Assembly: GCA_963969595.1 (NCBI GenBank)
Contig: OZ018413.1
Coordinates: forward strand, 1,800,501-1,864,500
Direction of reading: 5' to 3'
Length of the DNA: 64,000 nt
From: Neckera pumila
Taxonomy: Eukaryota; Streptophyta; Bryopsida; Hypnales; Neckeraceae
A program made the translations under genes and the position numbers. The notes beneath the pieces were generated by a model, which did no database searches, was not told where the DNA came from, and worked only from the letters and a program-made list of their open reading frames with translations. Of the stretch, positions 22,443 through 64,000 are shown one piece after another; the first letter of the stretch is position 1; each line of letters begins with the position of its first letter.

Positions 22443-23384
22443 TTTACCCCCTAAAGGACCAAACACTATTTTTTGGCAACATAGCATTTTTGGGCAACTC
22501 ACTACAAATGGAAATTTTAATTTTTTTCTTTGAAATTTTCACACAAGATGTGCCCAAGGAGTAGCTTCACGGCCCAACAAATTTCATAACTTTTGACTTT
22601 ATGGGTAAAACGTTATTGCATGATATGTCATTTTCATTGCTCGGTGGGCAGCCCGGGCAGCTCAAAAAAATTCTTTAAAAAACACTTTTTTGAAAAAGTA
22701 AAACTTGAAATTGGTTTTACAGATTTATATATACTTAGAAAGCTTGGAATCATTCCATTTGGATTAACGAGTCAAAAGTTATGAGGATTCTTAGTTGGAG
22801 GGTAGTTATGGAATCTCAACTCTAAAATAAACTTTGAAGTCCTTTTTCTAACTCAATTTTCAATATTTTTGAATAAAACAAAAAACATTGGGTGTATATT
22901 GTTTATTACAACATTAAAACCGTTGGGATTGGCATTTTTCAATTCCATAACAATATTCTTGACAATTCAGTATTTTGAGTCATTCTCTACCTCTTCCTAC
23001 TTACTATTTTCTTCCTATATGTTGTACTATTCCAAATGATCTGAAAATTTTCAAGCATATAGCCAACTTGTCTTGAAGAATGAATCCAAAGAGTAACCAC
23101 CATTTTGGACATTTTTTCATACAAATGTGACCTTGTGAAGGGCAGCTGCCCGGATTTTTGCAGTGATTAAAAAAGGATTTTTGTCAATTCAAACGCTATT
23201 ATCTTGCAATCTACATGGTGGAAAATTCTGAAATTTTTTCCACATCTTCTTAAACCAGTGTACTACAAGATCCTACGGTTACATATGTTCAAAAAAAAAA
23301 ATTCTAAAATTTGGTATTTGTATTAGAAATGGCAGTTTTGGAGCGTTTTTGGTGAAGACATAGTCAAAAACCTTTAGGGGTTAA
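22443..23384 (+). mobile_element. TTAA element, subfamily A, copy 1 (942 bp)
   Basis: It begins TTTACCCCCTAAAGGACCAA and ends CTTTAGGGGTTAA. Internal landmarks shared with the other A copies are a GGGCAG box, AAAGTTATGAGGAT, TTGTACTATTCCAAATGATC, CTACAAGATCCTACGGTTAC and GAAATGGCAGTTTTGGAGCG. No ORF of note. It is an older copy with a damaged left end. Confidence 0.85.
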
Positions 23385-24489
23385 AAGGGAGAGAAGAATC
23401 TACATGAAGAGCTTCCCATTTTCATTTGCAAATATACAAAATAATGAATGTCTCATTTCGGGTAGCTTGTTCATTCCAACACAAAACTCTGTGTGTTTTT
23501 TGGCTTTTGTAGAATGCATTGTGTTCATGCAAAGACAGTTGGACAATGTGTAGCTGCTGCAACATCCAACATGCAATTTCTAATTAGAGTTTAGGGTTGT
23601 GAAATTTAGGATAGTTTCGGAAATCTTCTTTGTGCAGAGATGTCTTCAAGTTTTTGGAATTGCAATTCTATGGTAGCACTTTGCAGTTCTTGCTTGTTAA
23701 GGTCACAGAGGGTTCTTTACTTTCTATTGAAGAACAGATCTTCATCAATTTTTGTACCGTTGTGCAAGAAGATTTCCCATTATCATTTGATAAGGGTTAT
23801 ATTCATTTGTTTTGTAGTTGACGGTGTGTTGTTGTCTTTCTTCAACATCAGTTTAGGATTTCATTTAGTGATTTGTATATGTGGAAATCTCTTGTAGACA
23901 AAGAAAAGGGCGTGATGCAGCTAAGGATAAAGCTTTATACGTTGGAACATTTTGAAGGACATATTGTAATCACGCAGGAGGGCTGGGCAGAGTGGAACAT
24001 CTAATTCAGTAGGGTTTAGGGTAGTTTCAAAACCTTTTTCATGCACTATGCAAACTTCTATATGGTTTTGAACTTGAAATTTTGAAGAAGCATTTTGTTC
24101 TTTAAAGTCGCAAAGGATTCTTTACTTCCTGCTGAGGAGGGCAATTTTGGAGTCAAAGTTTGGAGTCAAAGTGCAAGAAGACTTTCCATTATCTCCTTGT
24201 AAGGATTTTCTTCATTTGTTTCATCCCCAAGTTACTTCTGACTAACTTAGAGTTTCTTCCGCATTGAATAAGTGCTGATTAATATTAAGTTCGCAATTAT
24301 TATTTTGGGAACTTGCATGTTAGTAGCTGGAAGCAGCAAAGTTTTTATTACTGAAATTGAAACCCTAGGGCATGCTGAAATGTGGTTTGCATTATTTTAT
24401 CTCTTTGCAATGTTTGTCAAAAGTGGAAGAGCTTTTCTCTATATTGGTTTTTTTGAGGAATCATCGTCCTAGGTTTAGAATGGAAAAGC
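23385..24489. other. AT-rich stretch without a recognised gene
   Basis: Short open frames only. Two loosely repeated segments containing GTTCTTTACTTtCTatTGA and AAGA.TTtCCATTATC (about 23,710-23,790 and 24,115-24,200) suggest an old local duplication. Confidence 0.4.
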
Positions 24490-24758
24490 ATTACAAAAAA
24501 TTTGAGGCCTCAACAAGGCTACTAAGCCTTGCCCCCCCATGGTGCAATTATGGAAAAAAAAAAAAAAAAAAAAAAAATTGAAAAGTTGAAATGTGACGTG
24601 GTTGCACTTTGACCATGTCAGCATCACGTCAGAGTCATGTCAGCACCACATTAGATTGAAAAAAATTTAATATATTTCTTTCAATTTTTTTTTTTTTCTC
24701 CTGTAATTCCAAAAATCACGCACTTGCAGTCTTGTTGAGGCCTGAAATTTTTTGTAAT
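24490..24758. mobile_element. 269-bp MITE with ~28-bp terminal inverted repeats
   Basis: The left end ATTACAAAAAATTTGAGGCC continues with TCAACAAG. The reverse complement of the right end reads the same with a G-to-C change at one position. The interior holds an A-tract (about 24554-24577) and several GTCAGCATCACGTCA-like motifs. It has no ORF. The right end lies only 30 bp before the next TTAA element. The TSD is not clear, so the superfamily is not assigned. Confidence 0.7.
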
Positions 24759-24788
24759 AAAAATGATTGTTGTTGCTAGAATTGTAGT

Positions 24789-25714
24789 TTAACCCCTAAA
24801 GGACCATTTTGTCTCCTTGAGGGACAATTTGGGTCTGGACAAGTTCCTACTGTCTCAATTTTTAGTGATACTTTTTGGGATTTTTTGAAGTTGTATACTT
24901 TTGCAAGAGCTTTGTGAATGTATAATTTTTATTTTAATTGATGTCTGGGAGAAAAAAAATTTGGCGCAATAAGCAAAACTGGAAATCAGTGGGCAGCACA
25001 AAAAAATCACATAAAGTCAAAATAATTTTTTTTTCTCAAAGATTATATTTTTGTCTACATGTGAAGCTTTGTTTCATTCAATTTGGACTAGTAATGAGAA
25101 AGTTATGAACAATCTTAGTTTTTTAAGGCAATCTAAGCATCTTCTTGAAAAAAAGACTTGTAGAATTCATTTTTGAGTGCCATTTTTAGAATTTTTCAAA
25201 AAAATTTGTTAAATAGGGTTAGATTTTTTTACTAGAACATTCAATCTCACCATTGGAATTATTGTGTTTCAATTCCATCTAAAAGCTATTAACAATTTAG
25301 TTTTTTCTTCAATCTTGACCCCACCTCTACTTAACAATTTCTTAATGAGTGAAAATTAAGTGCTTTTTTTCCTAAATTCTTTTTTTAAAATTTTCAACTC
25401 AACTATTTAACAAACTTTTGTAGAAAATCAAATCAATAGTGCAAAAATTTGAACTAAAAAGATTCAAAGCCAAATAATCTAATCAAGCAAGGTGCAAAAA
25501 CACTTGTTTTCTTCACTTTAAATGCATATATCTTGCAATCCTATGGTCAAAGTTTCTGAAATTGCTTCCATGTATTCATATATTAGTCAAGTATAAGATT
25601 TTATGGTTGGATATGCAAAAAAATAAAACATCTAAAGCTCTTTTCTCTTTGCAATAGAAATGACAATTTTGAGTGGTTTTTGATAGGAAAATCACCTTGG
25701 TCCTTTAGGGAAAA
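24789..25714 (+). mobile_element. TTAA element, subfamily B, copy 1 (926 bp)
   Basis: It begins TTAACCCCTAAAGGACCATT, followed by a subterminal palindrome TTGTCTCCTTGAGGGACAA. The right end is degenerate (TCCTTTAGGGAAAA at about 25701-25714). Internal segments align with the other B copies, including TAATGAGAAAGTTATG and CACCATTGGAATTATTG. It also supplies the intact empty site (TTCACTTTAAATGC near 25,520) that is occupied in the copy at 45,836. Confidence 0.85.
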
Positions 25715-26937
25715 CTTTTGGCTTGAGAAAATGATTATTTTAGGATTTATTATTTTGTTATCTTTTAGGCTTGAAGGTCCCTATTTCCCTAAACCATTGC
25801 ATTTGTAAACACATATGTAAACCGTAGATAATATAATACTACTTGTGTGGTTTTTAGTTTCCCTGGGTTTTTCTCATGTTGTTCATGTATGATTTGTTTG
25901 TATAAATTGTATGTCCATATATGTATTGTTTATATTCAAAAGTGGTTAGAGTGTACATGTTATAGCAATCAATCCTAAAACTATGTACAAATATTTGAAT
26001 TACAATAGAAACTTATTTAAATGCCTCAAATTTCAATTTGAACTACAATAGGGTATAGGAAAATGGGCAAAAAGTAGAAGTAGAAAAAAATAGGGGCATA
26101 TATATTGTGAAATAATAGCTAAATAGCCTCCAAAATAATAAAAATTTGATGCACGTATATATAGATGACACGATATAATGAAGTACCCAAACTTTGGGCA
26201 CATTTATGAGACAAATTTGACTTCCTTATAGAAATTTGACTTCCTTATAAAATTTTGACTATATATTAAACAAAGATTGTTGATTATGATACTCATAGTC
26301 AACCAAATGAAATTTTGAGGCCTTATAAATATACTTAATTATGAAATTATGAAATTTATGTCATTACAATTGTTTGATTTCTAGAATAATTAGAAATTAC
26401 TGACTAGTACTAATAGAAGTTAAACATTGCAATTCTAAAATATCCTAGAAAATATAGGAAAAAAAAATATACACCCTAGAAAATAATTTGGAGAAAGTGA
26501 AGAAGGTGAAGTAGAAAGACATAGGTTGAAAGAAAAGAATTAGATCATAGATAGAGCTTCCAAAACCTTATTAAGTTGTTATAAAAGTTGTTATTTAAGT
26601 TGTATACAAAGATACAAAAATGCAACAATACAAAAATCAAAATGGGCTTCATGATACAATTACAATATGTGTGTTAATGAATGAAAATGTAGTGGAAACA
26701 GATTCTAATGCATGTCCAAAATCTGGCACTTTGTTATTTCTCTTCTTGTAGAAATCATTGTCACATTAGAAATTAGAGGTTTAAATTAGAGTTCTAAAAT
26801 TCTTCAAAATATCCAACTTTGAATTCAAAATCACTTCTGTAATTTCTAGAGGTTCCCAATAGCGTATCAAACTTTAAAAAAATAGATAAAAATTAAAGAA
26901 GATAGAATACGATGAAATTAGATAGTCAAGAGCATTT
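25715..26937. other. AT-rich gene-free stretch
   Basis: No gene, structured RNA or clear repeat boundary recognised. Very AT-rich throughout. Confidence 0.5.
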
Positions 26938-27513: not shown

Positions 27514-29770
27514 GTTTTGGATAAAAGATATGAAAACTCATCCATTCAGATCAAAAAGTAATGTTGAAATTTAGGTGGAATTTAGAGTCCAATCTTGAAA
27601 GTAAAAATTAATTTAGATTTATAGGCTAAAAGAAAATGTTTGATGAAGTCTTGATGGATGAATTAGAGACAAAACTCTTCATCCACCCATAATATCTAAA
27701 GACTTTTATTATTTTGGATAGGCATGCAACGCTCTACAACATAAATTAACAAAAGTTTAAATTTCTCAACTTGGATTAGGAAGTCTAGAGATTAGGCCTA
27801 GACTGGACATAACCATCTAAACCACCCAAAACCTCTAACTTTTATAATCTTTGTTAGTTTAGTTAAGATGTGAACCACTTACAGTTTATCATTAAATAAT
27901 ATTTGTTCATTGGTTAGAATCCCAATTGAACAATACTTACATATCCAACTTAGGATTCAAAGCCCAACAACAAAAGACATGGTTGTGCATGCCTTGTCTC
28001 AAGAATATAGATAAAACACTCACGTGTTATATATTGAAGTTTTTTTCTTTCTTAGAAAGACTCTCAGCAATGTCTATAAGCCGCATTAATAGAATGTCTC
28101 TATAGACCCTATAGAAGTCAAAAAATTATTCATGTGAAGATTGAAGCTCATTGTAGGCACGTGCGAGCTTGTATTACAATGAAAAGCGTTTGTCTGGATG
28201 TTCTTATAAGGACATAGACTATTAAAGCATGATCCATTTTTTGCTTCAAAGATGCTTTTAAATAGTGCCTCTATCAAATATTTTTGCTCTTGCGCACTTT
28301 ATGCATAGACGTACATATTTTGACAGATGCATAGTATCTACTTGGATGTCTTTTTTTTTACCATAATTGTAGGTGCTTAAGGCCTTGCAACTTCCTTAAA
28401 TCCCTTCATACATTTTGTGGAGTTTTAGTATTAATATGTATCTACTTTGAATCAAATTTTGTTGTTAAAATAGCTTTGTTGCTTAGTACAATCATCTTTG
28501 GTCAGTCGCATGACTACATCAAGTCAAATAACTAAGGCAAATCATATGACTAGAGCAAGTCATGTGCATGATTAGAACAAGTCATATGACAGGTTTTAAA
28601 ATCCTAGCCGCCATGTTGTGTAGTTGATCCGGCTCCTCAGCACCACCGATCAGGTTGCTTCTCTTTTGCATATGCATTTGCTAAGGTTCCCCAGCTATGC
28701 CAATCAGGTTGCTTCTCCTTCCCAGATTGATCAAATTACCAATGAGCTCCTCAACATTACTGGACATGGTAATTGCTTGAATGTATTTTCAAACGTGGAG
28801 AATGGTGGGTAGAGTGAAAGCTGAGTACGTTATTGCTGGGGTCATGAGGACAGCCGGAAAGGAAAAGGAAGTTTGATTTTTTTTCTATATATTTTTTTCA
28901 ACTTTGTGAAGATAGGTGTCGGATGATGTAATGAATTCATGTTTTTTGATGGTTCATTAGTGATCCATGGAGTTAGAAAGGATACTGGAAACATAAAGAT
29001 TTAATTTATACAATTGAAAAGCTTTGTAGGGATTAGTGCAAATCAACATTGTAGCACTAAATTGACATGCACCACTAGAGACCTAAGTAAAAGCCAAATT
29101 GGTGCCATAGAAGCCATCTTGCAATAGTTGCATTATTGTTTCAACTTTTGTAAACTTCAATGGAAAATGCTTGCAGTAGTTGTATCATGATTTTTGAACA
29201 ACCGACTCAGATATACTCATATTAATGCTAAAACAACAGTCCCACATTCATTGAAGACTAGTGTTCAAATGAAGTCCCCAAATTAGAAGTCACAGCTTAG
29301 ATATTCCTAAAACTTGAAGTCACAGCTTGAATTCTATTTGGCAATTGGCCATTGCTCACAGTGGGAGTAAGCTTCCTTCTACTATGACTTTCTACCCATG
29401 ACTAAACCTTGACAAAATGAGGAGAATAAAATATTCTTTCCAAATCCATGGGTATCAGCGACAGCAGAGGTGGTTTCCATTATGCAATGATCTAAAAATC
29501 CTGCCCTAACCTCTGCCCCTCAACCTTTGGGCAAGAGAATTAAATTTTAGGCTTAGTATAAAAAGATGTGCCCGTGCTATTCCTTTGAGCAAGCACAACA
29601 ACTTTTCTTGGAATAACTTTTTTTCTAAAAATTGGATTGTCTTAAAAAAAATTGTCCTACAAAGATACTCCTTGGCCCTTGGGCATTCATGGTCAAAAAA
29701 TTTTGTGACCAAATATCCATTATTCTCCAAGTATTAGCCTGCCCAAAAATGCTATGTTCTCAAAAAAGGT
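27514..29770. other. AT-rich gene-free stretch
   Basis: No recognised gene. Near 28,500-28,600 there is a short degenerate run of CAAGTCATaTGACtAgAG units. Confidence 0.45.
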
Positions 29771-29778
29771 TGTTCAAG

Positions 29779-29792
29779 GCTTTAGGGGTTAA
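29779..29792. mobile_element. Isolated right end of a TTAA element
   Basis: GCTTTAGGGGTTAA matches the family's right terminus. A degenerate left end (CTAACCTCT) may lie near 29,507, which would make a 286-bp copy, but this is weak. Confidence 0.45.
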
Positions 29793-34588: not shown

Positions 34589-35514
34589 TTAACCCCTAAT
34601 AGCCCAAGGCCCTTTTTCCATAAAAAAACACTCAAAACTACCATTTCTATAGCAAAGAGCAAAAAAAAAATTTAATGTATTTTTTGCATATTTAACCATA
34701 GGATCTTGTACTACACTAGTGTAAGAATGTGAGGAAGAAATTTTAGAAACTTTGACCGTGTAGATTGCAAGATATTTTGCATTTAAAGTGAAGGAATCAA
34801 ATTTTTTTACACCTTGTTCAACCACATTTTTTGGCTTTGAACCTTTTTAACGTAAAATTTTTGCTCTAAAGATTTTGAATTTATAATTTTATATGATGAA
34901 GAATTGAGTTGAAAACCTAGGGAAAAAAATTCAAAACAAAACACGTAGTTTTCACTCATTAAAAATTTGTTAAGTAGAAGTAGGTTCAAGATTGAAGGAA
35001 AAATGAAATCATTAATAGCTCTAAGATAGGGTTGAAATATATTAATCTCAATGGTGAGATTGTTCTAGCAAGAAATCTTAACCTTGTGCAACTTTTTTTT
35101 CTTAATTGTCAAAATTGAGTTCAGAAATGAATCCTACAAGTTATTTTTTCAAGAAGATGCTCTAATTGCCCTAAAAATAAGTTTGTCCATAACTTTTGCA
35201 TAACAAATCCAAATGGAATGAATCAAAGCTTCCCATGTAGATGAAAATAAAATCTATATGAAAAATATTAGAAAAAAATTTAATTTAAAGTTTTTGTGAG
35301 GGTTTTCTTCTACCCGCCAAACTAAAATTTAGAGTTTTTATGCCATAACTTTTGCTACCGGGCACCAATTGAAATAAAAATTACATTTTTGGAAAGCTCA
35401 TCTAATTCTCTATCTTCACAAAAAAATACAAAAAATTAAAACAAATATTGAGACCGTAGGAGTCTGCCCAAAATCCATTTTGTCCTCCAAGGGGACAATG
35501 GGGCTTTAGGATAA
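34589..35514 (-). mobile_element. TTAA element, subfamily B, copy 2 (inverted, 926 bp)
   Basis: Read on the minus strand it is a B copy. The + strand starts TTAACCCCTAATAGCCCAAG and ends GGGGACAATGGGGCTTTAGG then ATAA. The subterminal palindrome TGTCC.CCAAGGGGACA is near the right border. The terminal TTAA on the right has become ATAA. It interrupts the minus-strand protein relic. Confidence 0.85.
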
Positions 35515-35750
35515 CCTCTCAAGACAAAGAAAAATGTTTACAATCTCCTTCTTTAAAAAGCTATGTAAATGTAACTTTGGCTGTTTTTCATAAAGAAGCT
35601 AAAGTACAACATTTAATCTCCATGCTTGTGAATCTTCTTGTGTCAATATCTTTAAAATAATGTTTAAATCAATATTAAAAAATTCTAATTAATGTACATG
35701 TATTGTACAATATGTAATTCAATATAAGAACTATTAACAACTGTGCACTA

Positions 35751-37200
35751 AGAAAGCTCCAATTTTTTTTTGCATTTGAACAAATTTTAGCATAATTTGC
35801 AAAAGAATTTGAATCCCCAAAATTGTGGCCGTTAACAACTAGGGTTGAAGAAGGCAATTTTTTTTAACATTTAACCAAATGGTATTCAAGATTGCAACCA
35901 TTGCCATTAATAGCAGGGGTTTAAAAAGGCTTCTTTTTCTTTGACATTTGACCAAATTGTATTAAATATTGCAAGAATATTTGAACCCCAAAAACCATTG
36001 CCGTTAATGGCTGGGATTTAAAAGGCAAATGTTTTTTAACATTTGACCAAATTGTATTAAATATTGCAAGAAAATTTGAACCTCCAAAACCACAGTCTTT
36101 AATAGCTAGGGTTTGAGAAGGCAATTTTTTTTACATTTGACCAAATTTTATTAAATATTGCAACCTTGTTGTTAATGGCAAGGGTTTAACCCCTAAAGTC
36201 CCATTGTCCCCTTGGGGGACAAATTAGATTTCGGGCAGATACCTACAGGCTCAATTTTTAGTGAAACTTTTCTATAAAATAGAAAAACTCATTAGCTTTG
36301 TGGGAATATCATTTTTATTTCAATTGGTGGCCAGGAGCAAAAGATATACCACAAAAAAGCCTCAAACTAAACTCGGCGGGCAGCACAATTTTTTTTGCAA
36401 AAAGTCAAAATAAATTTTAGTTTTTTTTTTTACTGAAATTTTATATTTTTGTCTACATTTGAAGCTTTGATTCATTTTATTTGGACTAATAATGAGCAAG
36501 TTATGGACAATCTTATTTTTTGGGCAATCTAAGCATCTTTTTGAAAAAATAACTTGTAGGATTCACTTCTGAATGCCATTTTTACAATTTTTTACAATTG
36601 GCTTTTTGATAATGTTTTGTTTGCTTGACAAAACAATCTCACCATTGGGATTATTGTATTTCAATCCCATGTAAGAGCTATTGACGATTTAGGTTTTTTT
36701 TCAATTTTGGACTTATTTCTACTTAACAATTTTTTAAAGAATGAAAATCAAGTGTGTGTTTTTTGAATTTTTTTTTGTAGACTTTCAACTTACATCTTCA
36801 ACATAAAAAAACTTAAATTCAAAGTCTGTAGTGCAAAAAATTTCCACAAATGGGGGTCAAAGTCATCTGAAATTGCAGGTCAATGTTCAAAAAAACTTTC
36901 TTTTTCAACTTTGAATGTAAATATCTTCCAATTTATGTGGTCAAACTTCATGAAATTTTCATCACATGATCTTTTACAAGTGAAGTACAAGATCCTTTGG
37001 TTAGATTCTTAAAAAACATTTTTTTTTGTGTTCTTGGGTGAACACAGCCAAAATAGCAGTTTTGAGTGATTTTTGACATAAAAATGGCCTTGGGACTTTA
37101 GGGGTTAAGAAGGCTTCTTTCTTTTAACATTTGACCAAATTATATTAAGTATTGCAAGAAAAATTGAACCCTCAAACCATTGCCATTAACGGATGGGGTC
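35751..37200 (+). repeat. ~95-bp tandem repeat array, interrupted by a TTAA element
   Basis: Units of 73-98 bp start near 35751, 35849, 35922, 36019 and 36114, and resume at 37109 beyond the inserted element. The core is AACATTTGACCAAATTGTAT followed by TAAATATTGCAAG, AATTTGAACCCC, CATTGCCGTTAATGGC and GGGTTTAA. Two more units lie at 38,691-38,856, after a second insertion. Some units lack an internal ~20-bp block. Confidence 0.85.
36186..37108 (+). mobile_element. TTAA element, subfamily B, copy 3 (923 bp)
   Basis: It begins TTAACCCCTAAAGTCCCATT and ends TTGGGACTTTAGGGGTTAA, giving terminal inverted repeats of about 18 bp. A subterminal palindrome TTGTCCCCTTGGGGGACAA follows the left end. 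It sits inside the tandem array, replacing GGGTTTAAaaaGGCTTCTT of an uninterrupted unit by GGGTTTAA...TTAAGAAGGCTTCTT. This shows TTAA as the duplicated target. Confidence 0.93.
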
Positions 37201-38690: not shown

Positions 38691-39058
38691 GGTTGGGAGT
38701 TAAAAAGGCAAATTGTTTTTAACATTTGACCAAATTGTATTAAATATTGTAAGCAAATTTGAACCCCCAAAACCATTGTTGTTAACGCCCGGGGGTTTAA
38801 GAAGGCAAACAAATTTCAACATTTGACCAAATTTTAGCATATGCTGCAAGTTATTTGGCAACATCTAAGCAAACTCATGTAGATTTGAAGGCCCCTAATT
38901 GTGAGTGCATCTACAAGAGAGGACAAGCTCTTTATACAAGTGGGGTGGTAGGAGGTAAAACAAATCATGTGGAATATGTAAATTAGGATTACTAGGAGCT
39001 CAACCATTCATACCTAGTTAAGTCAAAAAGCAGAAATTATATTCAATGTACGACTTTG

Positions 39059-39384
39059 GACCTCATTTTGGCATAGTAAAATAACTTTTTTAAGAAAGTT
39101 TTGAATTGAAAAAAGTTAATAAATGAAGTGGAATTTTATTTCTAAAAATCTATTTGAGATTTGAAGCCTTAAATTAAAAGTTATTAACAAAATTTAGAGA
39201 GGGGTTGGAAGGAATAATTTTTTTTGACATTTTCAAACATCTTCTCTAAATTTTATCCATAACTTTCTTTTAGAGGCTCAAAATCACAAACAGATTTTTG
39301 GAGATGAAAGTGATTTGGATTTAACAACTGTTTTGGGTCTCAATGATTTTAGAAAAAGTTATTCTACTATGCCAAAATGAGGTC
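39059..39384. mobile_element. 326-bp foldback element
   Basis: The left end GACCTCATTTTGGCATAGTA and the right end TACTATGCCAAAATGAGGTC are exact complements over 20 bp. The arms stay complementary, less perfectly, along about 160 bp each (e.g. AAAAATCTaTTTG.GATTT and AAAATTTAGAGA in both arms). No coding capacity. Confidence 0.85.
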
Positions 39385-39789
39385 TAAGGTTCCACATTGA
39401 AAACAATTCCTGCATTTTGACAATGAGTGGTCAAGCTCTCATTTTTGAATTGTCTTATGTTCTTTGTGGATTCATGAAGGACAATGAATTTAATTATAAA
39501 AACAACCTCTCAATCATTCAATTTTGCTAAATATCAATAAAGTAATTCCTTCATTCAACCATCAAAAATATTCTTGATAATAGATGGTCAAATAATAGTT
39601 AATATATTGCTTAATGAATTGTTATTGGATTCTTTGGATTTTTGGCAAACCATCTTCACATTCATGTGAAAATATGGTTATTTGGTCCTAGATTTAGCCA
39701 AAAAAAGATAGCACTTTTTTTTAACTAATTTAAGCCGAGCTTACTATCTGAATATTAGCATTTGTTCAAGATGATTGTGGATGGATTTG

Positions 39790-43209: not shown

Positions 43210-44144
43210 TTAGCCCCTAAAGGACCAACAATCATGCGTTTTTTGGCAACATAGAAATTTTGGGCAAGTACGTGTGACTGGAGATTTGCATATTTTGGGC
43301 TGAAATTTTTAAAGAAGGTGGGGACAAGGAATATCTTTCATACACACCAAATTTCATGACATTTGAAAATACAAGTCAAAAGTTATGGCCTAATACATTG
43401 TTTGTTTCTCAACTCAGGTAGTTCGGACAGATAAAAAAAAATCAATTTTTTCAAAAATAAAAATTTGAAATTGATTTATTAGATTTATATATACATGGAA
43501 AGCTTTTACTCATTCCATTTTGATCAATGATTCAAATGTTACAAGGATTTTTAGTTTGTGGGCAGTTATGGATTGTCTACTCTTAAATAAACTTTGAAGT
43601 TGTTTATTTCACTGAATTTTCAATATTTTTCAAAAAAAATAAAGCTTTAGGATGTAGATTGTTTATTAAGACATTGCAACCATTGGGATTGGCATTTTTC
43701 AATTCCATAATTAACTTCTTAACAATTTAGTGTTTTGAACATTCTCTATTTCTTTCTACTTACTATTTTTTTCTTGTATGTTGTACAATTCCAAATAATC
43801 TGAAAATTTTCAAGCGTGTAGCCAACTTGCCTTGAAGAATGAATTCAAAGAAGCTCAACCGTTTTAGATTTTTTTCATAAAAATCTGACCTTGTAAAGTG
43901 CAGCTGCGCGGTTTTTTGTAGGGTCAAAAAATAGACTTTTGCCACTTTAAACATTAATATCTTCCAATCCACATGATGGAAATTTCTGAAATTTTTTCCA
44001 CACATTTTCAAACTAGAGTACTACAAGATCCTATGGTTACATGTGTCCAAAACTGATATTTTTCAAAAATTTGGTACTTGTCTTAGAAATGGCAGTTTTA
44101 GAGCATTTTTGGTGAGAACGTAGTCAAGGAACTTTAGGGGTTAA
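43210..44144 (+). mobile_element. TTAA element, subfamily A, copy 2 (935 bp)
   Basis: It begins TTAGCCCCTAAAGGACCAAC and ends AACTTTAGGGGTTAA. The internal landmarks of subfamily A are all present in the same order. No ORF. Confidence 0.92.
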
Positions 44145-45835
44145 CTCTCATTGGTTGCTTCAAAAAACTTAAAAATTGCTCATTGCATCTAAAAGTTGTG
44201 TTCATTGTGAGTCAAGAAGTGTTCATTTTAACCCTTTATTTAGGTAATGGAGAAAAGAAAATGACGCTTGTAGACACTTCTTCCTTAACAAGTTTACAAC
44301 CAAACTGTTGTAAACTCTTGTAATTGTAATATACAAGTTGATTCAATTGGTGCAAGAGTATAATTGAACAAGCCACTTCAAACAAAGTTGGATGAATGTT
44401 TGATGAATGTGGTTTAATTAGTATGACCATTCGGATGAATTTTAGTTGAAATTTGATGAAAGTTGGATGACAATTATACTATTGGAGATAGTATGAAAAC
44501 AGAATAAACCATATTAGATCAATTCTACAAAAACACCACAAACTTCTATATTAGTTAGTCTCACAAGCTAGCAAGAAAACAATTAGCCCTTATCTAATTT
44601 ACCAAACCACAATGAAAAAACAACCTTTTCCACATCAACACCCACTTTGATACTTCCATCTTCTTTATAACCCCATTCTTTAACCCTTCACTTCTCCAAC
44701 TTCTCCAATCCCCCCCCTCCAAAAAAACATCCTCTCCTTTTATTGAATAATACTCTATAGGAAAAATAATATCTCTCTTTCAACAAAGATACTTGACTTA
44801 AGTGTCATTTGTATTGTCTTTTTAGAGTCTCTTGTGGAACCTTAAATGAACCTATTTCTTTATGTAGACCAATTATAAACAACGTGATTGGAGTTATTTC
44901 TTCTACACTTTGCAAATTTAATCAATTTCCAAGTTACTGCAACCTAGTATTAATACTGCGGGGTGTACAAATTGAATTAACTTGTCTACTACAAGCAAAA
45001 AATTTGAACAATTTGAGCTATAGTAATAATTGTTCATATTTCAATTTTTATTTTAAAACATGGCCTATTTACATTGTTTACATTGTCTTTAGTGGAAATT
45101 GGTACCTACTCCGACTTGTAAGATGGGCCAAGCAATCAATGATCCAAGTTTATACCTTTTATGTAGTTTACGCTTTGTAGTTTTGTTTTTTGTTTTTTTA
45201 TAGGTATACCATGACACTAGAACTCCACCAATGCCATTTTGTAGCTTTCAAATTTGAATTTCCCCTCCAATTCTTGTTTTGATATATATTCGAATAGAAG
45301 TTAGTTTTACCAATGGTGTTGGAAATTTGCATAATTGAAGTGTTTATGAGTTTAATTTCTACATAAGAAGATATTGTAAAAAGAGATCACCAAAAATTAT
45401 TTCTTTTGTATATTTGGTCAACTTTAGTGACTTTTATTTTTGAATGCCATCATGATCAAATGTACAAAACTAGTTGTAATGTGAAGTTCAAATAGTAAAA
45501 TCTAATTGTAGTACAAACAACAAGTATAACTAATTTCAATAATTTAACATGCAACAATCCACCATCGAAACAATCCACCACAGATTTTTATTAATTATTT
45601 AATGACAGTTTTTTTATTACAATGAAAGATGTACATTTGAATATTTCCTACATACCCACTCAAAATTTAAAACTATGAAATTGAATTTTTTAAAGTTCAT
45701 CAAAAGAGGATTTAAAAAAAAATATATATAGTCATGATTTTCCATATCTCACCATTTGAAGCTTCTAAAAGACTATTTCAAGCCTATTTCTAAATTTGGC
45801 CTGATTTTGTGAACAGTCGGTAAAGGTTGTCAGAA
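44145..45835. other. Gene-free stretch
   Basis: The longest open frame, 44809-45180 (123 codons), encodes a Leu/Tyr/Phe-rich peptide with no recognised domain, and I do not regard it as a gene. Degenerate GATGAAtgTTtGATGAA units occur around 44,390-44,470. Confidence 0.4.
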
Positions 45836-46054
45836 TGTTTTTTTCTTCAATCTTGACCTATTTCTATTTGATACTTTTTTACAGAGTGAAAATTAGGTGT
45901 ATATTTTTTGAATTTGTTTTCCTAGATTCTCAATTCAATTCTTCAACATACAAAATTAGAAACTCAAAATCATTGGTTCTCAATTTTATGTTAAAATCAT
46001 TCAAAGCCAAAAAATTCAGTCAAGCAAGGTGCAAAAAAACTTTTATTCTTCATT

Positions 46055-46593
46055 TTGACCCCTGAGCGCTCAAGCGACCATTTTTTGGTTGCTACCCGAT
46101 TTTAGGCAAAATTTTCGGGCAAAATTTTTTTTTTTCAACTTTTTTTTTTTTGGTCAAAAGATTGGATTGTCTATAAATATTTATATTCAAAACTTAGATC
46201 GCTACAGTCAAACAAAAATTATAAGAGAAATAGCACAAAGTATTTAGATTTGCCTAGTATTGAAAAACTTACTATTTTGGAAAAGTGTTCGTGTTCTCAT
46301 TCCTAAATATCATGCATTTTTTTACAAATCAATAGCAACCACAATTTTAACCAATAAAAAAAATTCAAATGCTAAAAATAAAAATTGTATTTTTGGTGAA
46401 TTTTTGAAGTTATATCTTCAAAATTCATTTTTAAAGAATCTAAAAATAATTTTATAAATTTGACCGTACGGATGCTTTCTACTTTTTGTGCTTCACATTA
46501 TCTTCTTTGATGCAAACTTCAAAAAAGATTTAGTACTTACATTTTATAATACATTTGTATTTTGTCCAAACCCCTTGGGCTTTTAGGGGTTAA
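46055..46593 (+). mobile_element. TTAA element, short subfamily C (539 bp), nested
   Basis: It begins TTGACCCCTGAGCGCTCAAG and ends CTTGGGCTTTTAGGGGTTAA, an imperfect inverted repeat. The interior differs from subfamilies A and B and contains long T runs. Its right TTAA is also the left TTAA of the following A element. Confidence 0.75.
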
Positions 46594-47512
46594 GTCCTAA
46601 GGGATCAACAACTTGCTAATTTTTGCAAAATAATGATTTTGGGTAGGTACATGTGACAGAGATTTGCATATTTTAGGCCCAAACTTTAATAGAAGTTGTG
46701 GACAAGGATTATCTTTCATGTGAACAAAATTTTATGACATTTGAAAATATGAGTCAAAAGTTATGGCCTAATAAGTTTAGTTTTTCTTTGTAAATGGACG
46801 GTCTGGTCAAATTAAAAAAATCACTATTTTCATAAATAAAAAGTTAAAATTCATTTTCTAGATTTATATATACATGGAAAGCTTTTATCATTCCATTTCG
46901 ATCAATGAGATGAAAGTTATGAGGAGTTTGTGATTGCGGGCACTTATGGATTCTCTATTCTATGATAAACTTTGAAGTCCTTTCTTTTACTCAATTTTCA
47001 ATATTTTTTGAAAAAAATAAAATCATAGGATGTAGATTGTTAATACAACATTGTAACCATTGAAATTGGCATTTTTCAATTCTATAACTAAATTCTTAAC
47101 ATTTCCGTATTTTGAATTATTCTCTACTTCTTTCTACTTGCTATTTTTTTCCTATATGTTGTACAATTCCAAATGATTTGAACTTTTTCGAGCATGTATC
47201 CAACTTGCCTTGAAAAATGAATCCAAAGAAGCACCACCATTTTTGACTTTCTTCAATTCCAATTTGACCTTGTGAAGTACAGCTGTCTTGTTTTTCGCAC
47301 GGCCAATTTCTCCCAATTTAAACGCTAATATCTTACCACATGGTGGAAAATTCTAAAAAAATTTCCATAGCTTTTCAAACCAGCATACTACAAGATCCTA
47401 CGGTTACATGTGTCCAAAAATGTGTTTGTTTCCAAAATTTGGTACTTGTGCTTAAAATGGCATTTTTCAAGCATTTGGGGGGAAAACATAATCAAAGAAC
47501 TTAAGAGTTTAA
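46590..47512 (+). mobile_element. TTAA element, subfamily A, copy 3 (923 bp), nested
   Basis: It begins TTAAGTCCTAAGGGATCAAC and ends GAACTTAAGAGTTTAA, a decayed form of the A ends. Interior A landmarks are in order (GTCAAAAGTTATGGCC, TTGTACAATTCCAAATGAT, CTACAAGATCCTACGGTTAC). Confidence 0.8.
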
Positions 47513-47917
47513 ATGCAAATATCTTGCAATCTACGTTGTGAAAGTTTCTAAAATTTCTACCACACATTTATATACCAGTTTAGTGAAAGATTCTATGGTT
47601 AGATAATTACGCAAAACCAATTTTGAAGTTTTTTGCACTTTGCAATAGAAATGACAGTTTTGAGTGGTTTTTGATGGAAAAAAATGCCTTTTGGGGTTAA
47701 AAGAGAAAAAGAGAGAAAGCTCAACAATAAGGACTGTGTGACTGAGAATCGTCCTTGCTGGCTATGTGCAAATGTTTGTCTGCAACTTCTTGGATCCAAA
47801 AAATCCATTCCAGAAAAGTGAGGTCTGATTGGCATGAGGAAACGGACACATTTCCCTTGCAGCCCCCGTGGCCCCATCGACATGACCTTTGCACTAACTA
47901 AAGGTAGTCTGCTCCAC

Positions 47918-48848
47918 TTAACCCCTAAAGGACCAACATGCGTTTTTTGGCCGTATAGAAATTTTGGGCAGGTACGTGTGATTAGAGATATCCATATTTG
48001 AGGCTGAAATTTTAATAGAAGGTGGGGGCGAGGAATATCTTCATGTGTACCAAGTTTCATGACATTTTGAAATACGAGTCAAAAGTTGTGACCTAATATG
48101 TTACTTTTTTTCGTAACTGGGCAGTTTGGGCAGATCAGAAAAAACCATTTTTTTCGGAATTTTTTTTTGAAATTGGTTCTCTACATTTATATATACTTAA
48201 AAAGCTTTGAGTCATTCCATTTCAATCAATGAGTCAAAAGTTATGAGGGTTTTTGGTTTGCGGGTAGTTATGGATTGTCTACTCTAAAAAAATCTTTAAA
48301 GTCGTTTATTTAACTCAATTTTCAATATTTTTGGAAAAAAAAAGAATCCTAGGATGTAGATTGATTATTACAACATTACAACCGTTGGGATTGGTATTTT
48401 TAAATTCCATGATTAAAATTTTAACAATTTAGTACTTTGAATCATTTTCTACTTCTTTCTACTTACTATTTTTTTCCTATATGTTGTACAATTCCAAATG
48501 ATGTGAAATTTTTCAAGCATATAGACAACTTGTTTAGGAAACTGAATTCAAAGAAGCACCACCTTTTTCGGCATTTTTTCATTGAAAAGTGAGCTTGCAA
48601 ATTGCAGCTGCCCGGTTTTTCGCAGGATTGAAAAAATGGTTTTCAAGACTTTGAATGCTTATATCTTATGATCCACACGGTGGAATTTTCTGAAATTTTT
48701 ACCACATGTTTTCAGAATATCATACTACAAGATCCTACGGTTACGTGTGTCAAAAATTGTTTTTTTCCAAAAATTTGGTAGTTGTATTAGAAATGGCAGT
48801 TTTGGAGCGTTTTTGGTGAGAACATAGTCATGAAACTTTAGGGGTTAA
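47918..48848 (+). mobile_element. TTAA element, subfamily A, copy 4 (931 bp)
   Basis: It begins TTAACCCCTAAAGGACCAAC and ends GAAACTTTAGGGGTTAA. It is very similar throughout to the copy at 61,698 and has exactly the same length, so these two moved relatively recently. The flanks (GGTAGTCTGCTC on the left, AGCAAC on the right) match a small inverted-repeat element elsewhere in the window. Confidence 0.95.
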
Positions 48849-50971: not shown

Positions 50972-51672
50972 TTACCCCCCAAATCCGCCATTTTTGCATA
51001 TGTGCCTAGTTAATTATTATTATGAGAGGGGTTGAATTTTTAGATTTTCTAGTTGGCACTTGAAAAGAGGTTCCAACACACCAAAGAACATGACATTTGG
51101 ATACCGTATATAAAAATTATGCAGCAACAAAGTTTGGTTCTAAAATGATTTCTTCCGCATACGTACATAATTGGTTTTGGAGATGTATGCGGAGTAAAGA
51201 TGGCGTTTTAGCATTAGTGATGTATTTTTTAGGGCCCACCTTAATCCTTAAGTAGTTCTAGGTGTCTTTCAATACATTTCTACAATACTATACATAACGT
51301 GAGTGCAATATACATAGCCTTGCAAGTGAATGGTCTATTGTCCATTTTTTTGGGATGAATACATATGGAAGTCTTCTATTGAACTGCACACTTTTTGGCT
51401 ACATCGGATATATTATCAATTTTGTAAATATTGTGAAGTTGTATCTCTAATACACGTATTTATCTAGAAGTACATATTTCAGCATGTTCTTAGCATCTCA
51501 TTTCAACAGCAAGCATCACAATATTTTTCTAAAAACATATGAAAATCAATGACTATTGCACTTTCGATTTTGTCGTTTACATACTTGGCCAATACTTCAT
51601 GGAATTTGGCAAATAAGGATTGCGTATAAATCTTGAGGACACAATGTGTTCCCCAAACCACTTAGGGGTTAA
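50972..51672 (+). mobile_element. Probable TTAA element, divergent form F (701 bp)
   Basis: The right end CCACTTAGGGGTTAA is clear. The proposed left end, TTACCCCCCAAATCC, is degenerate. An internal CACCAAAGAACATGACATTTG corresponds to the CACCAAaTTTCATGACATTTG landmark of subfamily A. Confidence 0.5.
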
Positions 51673-57140: not shown

Positions 57141-58069
57141 TTAACCCCTAAAGGACCAAGTCCTTTTTTCTGCCAAAGAACTCTCAAAACTGCCATTTCT
57201 AGAGCAAAGAGTAAAAAAATCTGAAAATTGTTTTTTTTGCACATCCAACCATTAGATCTTATACCTAACTAGTATGACAATGTGTGCAAAAAATTCCAGA
57301 ATATTTGACCCCATAGATTGCAAGATATCTGTGTTCAAAGTGAAAAAAACAAGATTTTCAGCACATTGCGGGACTAGATTTTTTCGTATTTGAACATTTT
57401 TAACTTAAATTTTTTGCACGACAGAGTTTTGAGCTTTAAATCTTTATAGTAGAGAATTGAGTTGAGAGTCTAAGAAAAAAAAAGAAATTCAAAAAAAATT
57501 AATTTTCATTCTTAAAAAAATTGTTAAGTAAAAGATAGTATAAGATAGAAGGAAAATCTGAAATATTAATACCTTTTAGATGGAATTAAAATGCACTAAT
57601 TCCAATGGTGAGATCGTTCTAGCAAGAAAACTAAACCAAGTGGAACTTTTTCTTTTGAAAAATTGCAAAATTGCATTCCAAAATGAATCCTACAAGTTAT
57701 TTTTTTCAAGAAGATGCTCTAATTGCCCCAAAAACAAGATTGTCCATAACTTTCTCATAAAAAGTCCAAATGAAATGAATCAAAGCTTCACAAATAGGAA
57801 AAAACATAATTTATAAGGAAAATAAACTAATTTTTTTTTCAAATTTTTTGCAAAAAAATTTTGGCTGCCTACTCTCCCTTGTTTTGAGCTTATTTGGACA
57901 TAACTTTTGTTCCCGGGCATCGATTGAAAAAAATTATCTTCCCACAAAGCTTATTATTTTTTCTATCTTCAAAAAAAGTTTCAAAAAATCACAACAAAAA
58001 TTCAACTTGTAGGTACCTGCCCAAAATCCCATTTGTCCTCCAAACGGATAATGGTCCTTTAGGAGTTAA
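57141..58069 (-). mobile_element. TTAA element, subfamily B, copy 5 (inverted, 929 bp)
   Basis: The + strand begins TTAACCCCTAAAGGACCAAG and ends TGGTCCTTTAGGAGTTAA, terminal inverted repeats of about 17 bp. The interior matches the inverted copy at 34,589 landmark by landmark (ACTCTCAAAACTGCCATTTC, TTCCAATGGTGAGATCGTTC). Confidence 0.92.
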
Positions 58070-59813: not shown

Positions 59814-60321
59814 ATAACTGTCATGCTCATGAGAAAGGAACGCCAACGAGTGAGTCTTGAAAGGTAAGAGGCTTAAAAATTGCTCGGACTTTAAGAATTG
59901 CCCTTATAATTCGCTTTGAAATGGACATGAGGTGGTCCTTAAATTGACCTCTACAATTAATTGAATGGATGGAGGAAGAAAAAATCTATTAATTGCAAAA
60001 GCCAATCATTCTCCTTGCCTCCCTCCCATGTTTCTTTACAAGATGCAAGTGAATGAAATAGGTGCTTATGCCACAACTTGTATGAAAATCCATAAGTAAT
60101 TCAATAATGCTTCAAAAAATATGAAACCACTAGTGTTACATTTTGCATCTATTTATCTTTGTCTGAAAAATGAGCTAAAAATATCCCCATTGAGATACAC
60201 GCATGAAGTACGGCGGACTAGTCTTTAAATGAGCGATTTTTTAGCCTCCTACCTTAATTGACCTAATTAATGTCTTTTGGATCTTCTTGGAGTTTGCTCA
60301 AAACTAAAGCCCAAGTTTGGT

Positions 60322-60820
60322 TTAACCCCTAAATGCCCAAGCCTTTTTTTTGTTTAGAAAAACATTTTGGAAATTTTAGAACGCAAGCTTTGAGAGCGAT
60401 CCAAAAAGATGAAACAAAATTGTAAAAATATGATCTTGGACTTCAAGGCTTGTCGAGGGTGTTGCAAAAAAGAATCAAATCAGAAGAAATAGTTGCATGG
60501 GTGTTGAGATATTTCTGATTGAATGTAAGGATAAGTAAGGAACTTAATTTTTTTTTTTCAGTTGCATGAAACTTTTAATGCCCGAATGGCAGCCTTCATA
60601 TTGGAAATTGGGAACAACCAATTATAGTGACTTAGTACCTATTGTTGTTACTAAAAACATACTAATTTCCCTCCAAAATCAATGACAACAACTTCAAAAA
60701 TGAACTTGCATTGCACAAGTTCTCCCAAAAAATTGAATAAAAAACTAAACCACTACCTTTAGCATGGACTCAAAATTTTCTACACACTAGATTTTGGTGC
60801 CATGGGCATTTAGGGGTTAG
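60322..60820 (+). mobile_element. TTAA element, short subfamily D (499 bp)
   Basis: It begins TTAACCCCTAAATGCCCAAG and ends CATGGGCATTTAGGGGTTAG, terminal inverted repeats of about 17 bp. The interior is unlike A, B and C. No ORF. Confidence 0.85.
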
Positions 60821-61129
60821 ATTTTATCAATTTAAAAAAACATTATAACCATACAAATTTGAACTAGACGTATTATGGATCACATATGAAAAGAAACACA
60901 ACAATATCACTTGTAGATTGAAAGATTATAATCTTTAAGAGGGTGTTAAAGTTATAAAAGTGATGTAATGTCTTTCACTTTTCTTCTTACATGTCAAATC
61001 TAAAATTGAGGTCATGAAAAATATATGAGGCCAAAGGACATGGCATGCACAACTATAACTGATTTATAGCTTTTCAAAATCTATTTTACATTTTTTTTAA
61101 ATGAATTTTCAATGTGATTTCTCTCCTAA

Positions 61130-61379
61130 GATCCGATGTACTTGAAGCTCATCTCCATAAGCCTCTAACACTAAAAAATCAACATTTGCAATGGGCATCC
61201 TTGCACAAACTCTTCAACAAGAAAATCATATAACACTAATTTTTGAGACTAGATTTTTGGTGCTTAAAATGGACTTTAAAGGATATTCAATTTTTAAAAA
61301 GTGCCAAAATAGAAGATTTTATTTAACTTCAAAATTTAGTCAACACCAAAATATGGTGCTTTAGGCATTTAGGGGTTAA
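61130..61379 (+). mobile_element. TTAA element, D-like right part
   Basis: The right end GGTGCTTTAGGCATTTAGGG continues as GTTAA. TTTTTGGTGC and GACTAGATTTT are shared with the complete D copy. The left border is not identifiable; 61,130 is approximate. Confidence 0.5.
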
Positions 61380-61697
61380 TCCCTAACAATCCTTGAATTA
61401 ATACAACATTCCTAAAATGTAAGATGTGTTATAAAATACAATATAAGAAAAATATTATTTGGTAATTTTTAAACAAAGTTGTAAGCAATGACTTATGGGT
61501 CATATTCACATAAATGGATCTACTTCTACATTAGCCAGTTGATATTTATTAATAAAAAAAGTATAGAACCAAAAAATTCTTTCTAAATTGATTGTATCAT
61601 GATTGTTAGTGATTTTTACAAGATTCTTTTTGTTATGAACTTATCATTTAAAATTTCAACAATGTTGATCTTTAAATATTTTGGTATTATTCATTAA

Positions 61698-62628
61698 TTA
61701 ACCCCTAAAGGACCAACATGCGTTTTTTGGACGTATAGAAATTTTGGGCAGGTACGTGTGACTAGAGATATCTATATTTGAGGCAGAAATTTTAATAGAA
61801 GATGGGGACAAGGAATATCTTCATGTGTACCAAGTTTCATGACATTTCAAAATACGAGTCAAAAGTTGTGACCTAATATGCTACTTTTTTTTGTAACTGG
61901 GCAGTTTGGGCAGGTTAGAAAAAAAATCATTTTTTCCAAAAAAAAAATTTGAAATTGGTTCTCTACATTTATATAAACTTAAAAAGCTTTGAGTCATTCC
62001 ATTTCAATCAATGAGTCAAAAGTTATGAGAGGTTTTGGTTTGCGGGCAGTTATGGATGTCTACTCTAAAAAAAACTTTAAAGTCGTTTATTTAACTCAAT
62101 TTTCAATATTTTTGGGAAGAAAAAAATGCTAGGATGTAGATTGATTATTACAACATTACAACCGTTGGGATTGGCATTTTTAAATTCCATAAGAAAATTT
62201 TTAACAATTTAGTATTTTGAATCATTTTCTACTTCTTTCTACTTACTATTTTTTTCCTATATGTTGTACAATTCCAAATGATGTGAAATTTTTCAAGCAT
62301 ATAGACAACTTGTTTAGGAAACATAATTCAAAGAAGCACCACCTTTATTGGCATTTTTTCATTGAAAAGTGAGCTTGCAAAGTGCAGCTGCGTGTTTTTT
62401 CGCAGGATTGAAAAAATGGTTTTCAAGACTTTGAATGCTTATACCTTATGATCCACACGGTGGAATTTTCTGAAATTTTTACCACATGTTTTCAAAATAT
62501 CATACTACAAGATCCTACGGTTACATGTGTCAAAAATTGTTTTTTTCCAAAAATTTGGTAGTTGTATTAGAAATGGCAGTTTTGGAGCGTTTTTGGTGAT
62601 TACATAGTCATGAAACTTTAGGGGTTAA
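61698..62628 (+). mobile_element. TTAA element, subfamily A, copy 5 (931 bp)
   Basis: It begins TTAACCCCTAAAGGACCAAC and ends GAAACTTTAGGGGTTAA. It is the same length as the copy at 47,918, with only scattered substitutions and small A/T-run indels. No ORF. Flanked on both sides by TTAA. Confidence 0.95.
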
Positions 62629-62836
62629 GTTTGTATTAGATGTTCTAGTTCTTCACCTAAGAAATAAAGTTAGTCTTCACTAAGATGAAACATGTTTGAA
62701 AAGTTCAAATTACAAAATATTTACAAAGAAGAGTTTTGAAAATCCTTACCACAAAAATACTAGAAAACTCCAAATGATTTTATACTCAATGCCAAGCATA
62801 AAAAACAAGAATTATGTGGTAAAGGCTTGATCATTT

Positions 62837-63754
62837 TTAACCCTTACAGGACTAAGGAGCCCACTTGTTTTTATTTGAAAACTTGAGGTAGGCTTTGTTG
62901 ACTTTAGAATTTAGAATTTGCAAGAAATTCTAAGGATGGATGCTAATTATCCTAATCTATGTGTAAAGCTTTGTTTAAGTTCATTCTAATAAATATTGAA
63001 AAAAATAAAAGTTTTTTACTAGTTTTCATATCAAAATAGACAGCTAAAAATACATTCTAAAAAAAGATTTGTTATTTATTATTGGATTTTATAAATTGAT
63101 GCCTACTCAAAAATATTAGAACCATTCAATTTCAAATGATGAGGTGAAAATTACAAAGACTTTTATTTTGTGGGCAACAAAGTTAGAAAAAACATATAAA
63201 GAGTCAATTTTAACACTCAATTTTGAATTTTTTTCAAATTAAAAAATAAGAAAAGATACCAATTTTTTATTAGATACCAAATATACACCAACTATTAACA
63301 ATTAACAATTCTCAACTTCTTGTAAAAGTTATAAGTAGTTTAATTTTTTCTTTCATTTAGAACCACTTTCCATTTTATAATTTCTTAAGGTTAATATGAA
63401 AAAAAATGTTTAAGTTTTTTGCCATACATTCTCAAACCATTTTTCAACAAGCTGACTAAAATACACACAGTTATAGGATATGTTTTCTTCTTAAAATGTT
63501 AAAAGATCAAAATTTACCTTTTAGAAGGGCTAGAAAAGCCTACATTTTGAAGTGTAGGCACATTGAATTTACAATCGGTGGAAATATTCACTTTAAATTT
63601 TGGGAGGATGTCACTTGAATAAGTTACTTAAAGGATCCTAAGGCTGGATTAATTAAAAAGTAAATATATATAGATGAAGATTTTAGCTTGGCTTTGGGGA
63701 CAAGTATTTTGAAGCAGTTTTAGGCCTCGAAATATCAAAGAACTTAGGGGTTAA
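62837..63754 (+). mobile_element. TTAA element, divergent form E (918 bp)
   Basis: It begins TTAACCCTTACAGGACTAAG and ends AAGAACTTAGGGGTTAA. The interior keeps only faint A landmarks (CATTCAATTTCAAATGATGA, then GAAAATTACAAAGACTTTTA, TTTGTGGGCA). Length is close to the A and B copies despite the sequence divergence. Confidence 0.8.
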
Positions 63755-64000
63755 ACTAATGTTTGTGGTCATACTTTTTCATTTTCTTAGCTTTGTCTCT
63801 AGTGGAAAGTGTTTGCAATACAAGAATCTTTAAAAATTTGGTTGGATGAACTTGGGCATTGAAAAATAAAAAAAAGAGTGTATGCATGGATGAATCCAAA
63901 TACTCCCTTTGTGCCAAAATCATCTTCTAGTTGAACAAACGGTTCAAGGCCTTAGACTAAAAACAACTTTGTTTCAATCCATTTCAAACTGTTCATAAAA
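63755..64000. other. Right edge of the window
   Basis: AT-rich sequence with no recognised feature. Confidence 0.5.

What the first reader, a model, noticed from the sequence alone, without database searches (positions are those of the whole stretch)
22443..63754. A TTAA-flanked, CCCCTAAAG-ended transposon family: piggyBac-like non-autonomous elements in a land plant
At least twelve copies or fragments begin TTAACCCCTAAAG and end CTTTAGGGGTTAA, at 22443, 24789, 34589, 36186, 43210, 45836, 46055, 46590, 47918, 57141, 60322, 61698 and 62837. TTAA as target duplication plus inverted repeats starting CCC is the established signature of the piggyBac superfamily, which is well known from animals and some fungi and protists but not from land plants. 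None of the copies has an ORF, so an autonomous partner must exist elsewhere. I consider this the best candidate for an undescribed system in the window.
Basis: partly seen in the sequence, partly recalled or inferred. Interest (0 to 1): 0.88.

Follow-up and report, generated by a model that had tools for sequence, protein, structure and literature searches.

The report
TTAA-targeting non-coding transposons in a plant
This stretch of what is most likely a land-plant genome is littered with copies of a non-coding jumping element that inserts at the sequence TTAA, probably moved by a piggyBac-type enzyme encoded elsewhere; it looks like a new family of a known kind of element, in a lineage where such elements are poorly documented.

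Summary
The window carries 10 end-to-end copies of a roughly 930-bp element (subfamilies A and B plus an outlier), one interrupted B copy, one truncated A end and two shorter elements with the same ends. Inverted termini are 9-14 bp (core CCCCTAAAG). Conservation starts exactly at TTAA: 18 of 24 termini examined are exact, and host flanks carry almost no signal. Two paralogous empty sites in the window show clean insertion: the closest sibling of one has a single TTAA; at the other, two of four siblings read TTAA and two TTGA. The copies are non-coding. A UVR8 gene points to a land-plant host. TTAA plus CC..GG termini match piggyBac and argue against Kolobok (RR..YY), but the fourth base is C, not the T of the CC[C/T]T hallmark, and no transposase was found. 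The host assembly search did not complete (14 attempts), so piggyBac membership is inferred. 'Not known from land plants' is overstated: published lists already name PiggyBac MITEs in angiosperms and PiggyBac hits in a fern. Verdict: a real non-autonomous TTAA family, new member of a known kind.

The parts
22444..23384 (+). full copy, subfamily A (left tetramer TTAC, right TTAA)
43210..44144 (+). full copy, subfamily A (left tetramer TTAG, right TTAA)
46590..47512 (+). full copy, subfamily A, decayed termini, TTAA at both ends; lies next to element C inside a B copy
47918..48848 (+). full copy, subfamily A, exact 13-bp ends
61698..62628 (+). full copy, subfamily A, exact 13-bp ends, closest pair with 47918 (K2P 0.06)
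62837..63754 (+). divergent full-length copy, about equally distant from A and B (48-51% identity)
24789..25716 (+). full copy, subfamily B; right terminus has lost its TTAA (end placed by alignment)
36186..37108 (+). full copy, subfamily B, inserted in a 95-bp tandem array that supplies the empty site
57141..58069 (-). full copy, subfamily B, reverse orientation
34589..35516 (-). full copy, subfamily B, reverse orientation; terminus on the high-coordinate side decayed (end placed by alignment)
45823..46058 (+). first part of a B copy interrupted by elements C and A
47507..47700 (+). remainder of the interrupted B copy, with right end CTTTTGGGGTTAA
46055..46593 (+). element C (539 bp including the flanking TTGA and TTAA), CCCCT ends
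60322..60820 (+). element D (499 bp including the flanking TTAA and CTAA), 14-bp TIR CCCCTAAATGCCCA; a second similar right end lies at 61379
29566..29792 (-). truncated A copy, only the left about 220 bp with intact TTAACCCCTAAAG end
50972..51672 (.). uncertain candidate element (ends TTACCCCCCAAAT / TTAACCCCTAAGT), not counted in any statistic

Best explanation
A family of non-autonomous cut-and-paste DNA transposons. Each roughly 930-bp element carries short inverted termini (9-14 bp, core CCCCTAAAG) that a transposase supplied in trans recognises. The transposase cuts the element out and joins it to both strands of a TTAA target with a 4-bp stagger, so TTAA ends up on both sides. Shown here: inverted termini, TTAA target, tetramer on both sides of filled sites against one in paralogous empty sites, nested insertion, lack of coding capacity in the frames examined, and diverged subfamilies. 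Inferred: that the trans-acting enzyme is a piggyBac-superfamily transposase encoded elsewhere in the genome, and that excision restores TTAA.
For: 26 end motifs against 2.30 expected. Across 24 termini information starts exactly at TTAA: flank positions at most 0.21 bits, TTAA positions 0.80-1.29 bits, CCCC positions 1.49-2.21 bits. Of 12 elements examined, 6 have exact TTAA at both ends and the other 6 at one end; none has the same non-TTAA tetramer on both sides. Site 1: 36186-37108 joined on one TTAA aligns without a gap at the junction to the closest sibling array unit at 35860-35985 (84% over 126 columns, GGGTTTAA in both). Site 2: the interrupted B copy joined over 46055-47512 aligns without a gap at the junction to the B copies at 25462-25580 (82% over 121 columns) and 34726-34841 (84% over 117), both reading TTAA there. 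Termini CC..GG plus 4-bp duplication are published for piggyBac (PMC10045372 passage); C-rich termini and TTAA in PMC2872659 (passage) and PMC10813416 (passage). Closest pair 94-95% identical.
Against: No transposase gene: six-frame Pfam scans of seven 4.8-kb stretches (42 translations; one match, E 0.05, unrelated family) and tblastn with a recalled T. ni piggyBac transposase (best E 0.43) found none. The fourth terminal base is C, not the T of CC[C/T]T. The empty sites are not uniform: of five same-strand sibling units aligned at site 1, two read TTAA without a gap, one reads TTTAA with a one-base gap beside it, and two lack TTAA at that place; of four B siblings at site 2, two read TTAA and two TTGA, and the filled site itself has TTGA on its left. 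Because TTAA is its own reverse complement, a shorter duplication (TA, TTA) with a strict TTAA preference cannot be formally excluded.
Confidence: 0.7

Rival explanations
1. The elements are moved by a TTAA-specific transposase other than piggyBac or Kolobok, such as a Sola3-type enzyme or one not yet described.
For: TTAA is used by more than one superfamily; the terminal CCCC lacks the piggyBac T at position 4 (PMC2872659 passage); no partner gene was found. Sola hits are listed in a fern (PMC6890710 passage). That Sola3 uses TTAA is recalled, not read.
Against: CC..GG termini fit piggyBac (PMC10045372 passage); the Sola3 terminal sequences were not found in the passages seen.
Confidence: 0.14
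2. Kolobok superfamily elements, which also duplicate TTAA.
For: TTAA target; Kolobok is reported from chlorophytes and rhodophytes (PMC9587614 passage).
Against: Kolobok termini are 5'-RR..YY-3' (PMC9587614 passage); here the first terminal base is C in 20 of 24 ends and the second is C in 20 of 24 and T in 4.
Confidence: 0.05
3. Tc1/mariner (TA) or PIF/Harbinger (TWA) elements whose enzyme happens to prefer TTAA.
For: TTAA contains TA, TTA and TAA, so duplication length is ambiguous by one or two bases in any single site.
Against: The outer T is kept at 21 of 24 ends and the inner A at 20 of 24, about as well as the central T and A (22 and 21 of 24). A TTA duplication would need asymmetric ends (ACCCC...GGGG). 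The closest sibling at empty site 1 has a full TTAA.
Confidence: 0.1
4. Not transposons but dispersed segmental duplicates or satellite-like repeats.
For: Family sequence makes up 10968 of the 41311 bp from 22444 to 63754, and copies cluster.
Against: Both orientations, flanks without shared signal, sharp boundaries at TTAA, nested insertion and two empty sites.
Confidence: 0.01

Closest known systems
piggyBac superfamily MITEs (for example the coral CMITE families, PMC2872659; passages read)
   Same: TTAA duplication, C-rich short inverted termini, non-coding, several families sharing internal sequence, arrays and insertions into one another
   Different: Here about 930 bp rather than about 100 bp; termini CCCCT rather than CC[C/T]T; plant host; no partner transposase identified
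PiggyBac entries in plant MITE/repeat surveys (PMC10004981, PMC6890710; passages read)
   Same: Class name only; the passages read do not give TTAA or terminal sequences
   Different: Survey lines without anatomy; no sequence could be compared, so identity with a named family is untested
Kolobok superfamily (PMC9587614; passages read)
   Same: TTAA-specific 4-bp duplication
   Different: Kolobok termini RR..YY, these CC..GG
Stowaway and Tourist MITEs (TSDs from PMC10004981 passage; otherwise recalled)
   Same: Non-coding, short inverted termini, AT-rich target, abundant in plants
   Different: Their duplications are TA and TTA/TAA; here TTAA

Membership tests
Class II non-autonomous DNA transposon | Inverted terminal repeats with target duplication and an empty-site counterpart | tested here: met
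   TIRs; two paralogous empty sites, with the variation among siblings told above
piggyBac superfamily | TTAA target and 4-bp TTAA duplication | tested here: met
   18 of 24 termini exact TTAA; 6 of 12 elements at both ends, 6 of 12 at one; closest sibling at site 1 has a single TTAA. Formal TA/TTA ambiguity remains.
piggyBac superfamily | Termini 5'-CC..GG-3' | tested here: met
   C in 20 of 24 at each of the first two terminal positions; signature from PMC10045372 passage
piggyBac superfamily | Terminal motif CC[C/T]T | tested here: not met
   Terminus is CCCCT: terminal position 4 is C in 23 of 24 ends; motif from PMC2872659 passage. PMC10813416 (passage) stresses CCC in the first three bases, which the consensus meets.
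piggyBac superfamily | DDE_Tnp_1_7-type transposase in an autonomous partner with the same ends | not tested
   Host assembly search unanswered in 14 of 14 attempts; not found in the window stretches scanned
Kolobok superfamily | Termini 5'-RR..YY-3' | tested here: not met
   CC..GG against PMC9587614 passage
Sola3 | TTAA duplication and Sola3 termini/transposase | not testable with these tools
   No passage seen gave the termini; a guessed DOI led to an unrelated paper
PIF/Harbinger or Tc1/mariner | TWA or TA duplication | tested here: inconclusive
   All four bases of TTAA similarly conserved, but the palindromic target leaves formal ambiguity

The most novel reading that the evidence does not exclude
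A land plant houses a long-lived TTAA-specific transposition system: a resident piggyBac-lineage (or undescribed TTAA) transposase that has kept moving a length-stable 0.93-kb non-coding passenger while its subfamilies diverged to about 0.7-0.9 substitutions per site and the termini stayed nearly fixed.
Probability: 0.35. Interest if true: 0.62.

Novelty: new member of a known kind. Interest (0 to 1): 0.4.

Why it matters
piggyBac-type enzymes can leave no scar on excision and are widely used as genetic tools (recalled), yet the plant mentions that I found are survey lines rather than described elements. A plant TTAA family with in-window empty sites gives a concrete end sequence with which to fish out a plant transposase from the assembly. 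If found, it would settle whether land plants have native piggyBac-type transposition and could supply a plant-adapted tool.

Tried and rejected
Structured RNA inside the elements: folding z-scores in 150-base windows over 10 copies were mostly near zero, the lowest -3.3 and -3.1 in neighbouring windows of one B copy; not pursued. Rfam on the window at gathering thresholds: 0 matches. Hidden coding remnant: of twelve consensus frames, the four scanned had one Pfam match, at E 0.2. A transposase in the window: none found. No positive control with X-masked stops was run. Not covered by the six-frame scans: 1-25714, 35202-37099, 46602-48848, 57702-58069 and 62872-64000 (only single ORFs from 1-25714 were scanned). 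The end motif elsewhere: 0 exact 18-mer matches in viral contigs; 1 in bacterial/archaeal contigs, in a Denitrovibrio MAG, no more than chance would give for an 18-mer in 257 billion bases, not followed up. One A copy against plasmids by distant blastn: no match. A GGGCAG/CTGCCC motif is enriched in A (13 in five copies against 0.6 expected from first-order random sequences) but absent from one A copy and present only 1-2 times per B copy; not built on. Copia protein search for taxonomy was uninformative: named hits among the 120 listed of 367 included an ant, spider, liverworts, a fern, cotton and a fungus. P-MITE paper not held. The moss paper only mentioned expression 'piggybacking'.

Rows dropped before the 24-terminus count: the truncated A end 29792, the B fragment end 47700, the extra D-like end 61379, and the uncertain ends 32895, 50972 and 51672. 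The two decayed termini (25716, 35516) were placed by alignment and were kept in the count.
Full report
Observation. The end motif TTAACCCCTAAAG (up to 2 mismatches) is found 26 times in the window where shuffles give 2.30 on average and 6 at most; 11 of 26 are exact. blastn with six seed copies, alignment and nhmmer profiles show ten elements that align end to end or nearly so. Subfamily A is at 22444-23384, 43210-44144, 46590-47512, 47918-48848 and 61698-62628 (75-95% identity to each other). Subfamily B is at 24789-25716, 36186-37108, 57141-58069 (-) and 34589-35516 (-) (70-74%). One outlier at 62837-63754 is 48-51% to the rest. A and B are 50-55% identical in the global alignment, and cross-profile matches reach E 6.1e-60, so the relation is real along nearly the whole length. 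An interrupted B copy (45823-46058 plus 47507-47700) and a truncated A end (29566-29792, -) complete the set. Two shorter elements share the ends: C (46055-46593) and D (60322-60820, 14-bp TIR CCCCTAAATGCCCA). Together these cover 10968 of the 41311 bases from 22444 to 63754.

Boundaries. Twenty-four termini of twelve elements were stacked (six other ends were left out as truncated, fragmentary or uncertain). The twelve host positions outside show at most 0.21 bits of information, the four TTAA positions 0.80-1.29 bits, and the next four 1.49-2.21 bits. Exact TTAA is present at 18 of 24 ends. The other six each have an exact TTAA at the opposite end of the same element, as expected of later mutation rather than of a different target. 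The perfect inverted match of the consensus ends is 13 bp for A and 18 bp for B including TTAA, that is TIRs of 9 and 14 bp.

Empty sites. Two filled sites have paralogous empty counterparts in the window. The copy at 36186-37108 lies in a 95-bp tandem array; removing it together with one TTAA gives a sequence that aligns without a gap at the junction to the closest sibling unit, 35860-35985 (84% over 126 columns; CAAGGGTTTAAGAAGGC against CAGGGGTTTAAAAAGGC). Of the four other same-strand units aligned, one (38716-38850) also reads TTTAA without a gap there, one (35937-36080) reads TTTAA with a one-base gap beside it, and two (36032-36163, 35765-35897) have lost TTAA at that place. The B copy near 46 kb is interrupted by C and then A, nose to tail across a shared TTAA; removing 46055-47512 less one tetramer restores alignment to B copies. 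Of four B siblings, 25462-25580 and 34726-34841 read TTAA at the site, while 57279-57394 and 36881-36966 read TTGA; the filled site has TTGA on the left and TTAA on the right. Both sites show clean insertion with one extra tetramer; site 1 supports TTAA well, site 2 less strictly. Because TTAA is palindromic, the strict statement is 'TTAA target, duplication most simply TTAA'; duplication of an inner TA or TTA with a strong TTAA preference would look the same.

Content. Consensus A (933 bp) and B (931 bp) have 14-25 stops in every frame. Four of the twelve frames were scanned against Pfam, with one match at E 0.2. Folding gave no consistent structure, and Rfam gave no match in the window. Six-frame Pfam scans of seven 4.8-kb stretches found no transposase (42 translations, one unrelated match at E 0.05), and a recalled piggyBac transposase had no tblastn hit below E 0.43. 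If a partner still exists it is most likely outside the window. The closest copies (47918 and 61698) differ by K2P 0.06; A copies otherwise differ by 0.22-0.31, B copies by 0.32-0.39, and A from B by 0.68-0.84; the outlier is 0.79-0.90 from the rest. The inserted length, counted with one TTAA, stays at 914-937 bp over the ten copies. Subfamilies so far apart that still share a nearly full-length non-coding interior imply a non-autonomous common ancestor and long reuse of the same ends; that is inference.

Host. Nine exon-sized tblastn matches to a recalled UVR8 run in order from 13058 to 17761, two of them weak (E 0.12 and 0.033). The joined translation is 85% identical to an unnamed sequence, 71% to a Marchantia paleacea protein, and 64-72% to the other hits among the 120 listed of 659; most named ones are land plants, while one entry (Mesen1) is to my recollection a streptophyte alga. 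This points to a land plant, apparently not one of those named in the list; the clade remains open.

What it works like and what it is. It works like a TTAA-specific cut-and-paste passenger. Among TTAA users, Kolobok is published as RR..YY (PMC9587614, passages) and piggyBac as CC..GG with 4-bp duplications (PMC10045372, passage); these elements are CC..GG. The stricter hallmark CC[C/T]T (PMC2872659, passage) is not met at the fourth base. I therefore call it piggyBac-like by structure, not a proven member, at about 0.7.

Novelty. The claim that piggyBac is unknown in land plants does not hold as stated. A review lists PiggyBac among seven angiosperm MITE superfamilies (PMC10004981, passage), and a fern genome paper tabulates 1230 PiggyBac hits, 122417 bp (PMC6890710, passage). 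Ten full-text searches, judged by titles and starts of abstracts of the papers listed, showed none that describes a TTAA/CCCCTAAAG family in a plant; Repbase, Dfam and P-MITE could not be searched. It is best called a new member of a known kind, of moderate interest, which would rise if the partner enzyme is found.

Noticed in passing
window 13058-17761 (+): Exons of a UVR8 (UV-B photoreceptor) orthologue, in order; best database match 85% to an unnamed sequence, best named match by score 71% to Marchantia paleacea.
   Followed up: partly
window 4276-8434 (+): Degenerate Copia-type retrotransposon in consecutive ORFs; Pol_BBD and gag_pre-integrs above cut-off, rve and RVT_2 only weakly, protein relatives with RVT_2.
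   Followed up: partly
window 35761-36163, 37098-37176, 38693-38868: 95-bp tandem array split by a TTAA element; diverged units appear again about 1.5 kb further on.
   Followed up: partly
window 39022-39421: Inverted repeat with 179-nt arms (74% complementary) 42 nt apart, a possible fold-back element.
   Followed up: no
window 61367-61390: Two terminus-like sequences back to back across one TTAA (CATTTAGGGGTTAATCCCTAAC), as if two elements had inserted at the same TTAA; compare C and A sharing a TTAA at 46590.
   Followed up: no
window 52997-55383 (-): Broken ORFs that read to me like a hAT-type or zinc-finger-862-like protein (recalled impression); no Pfam match.
   Followed up: partly
window 1-22443: The family profiles found no copy in the first 22 kb, which hold the UVR8 gene and the Copia relic; 10968 of the next 41311 bp are family sequence.
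   Followed up: no
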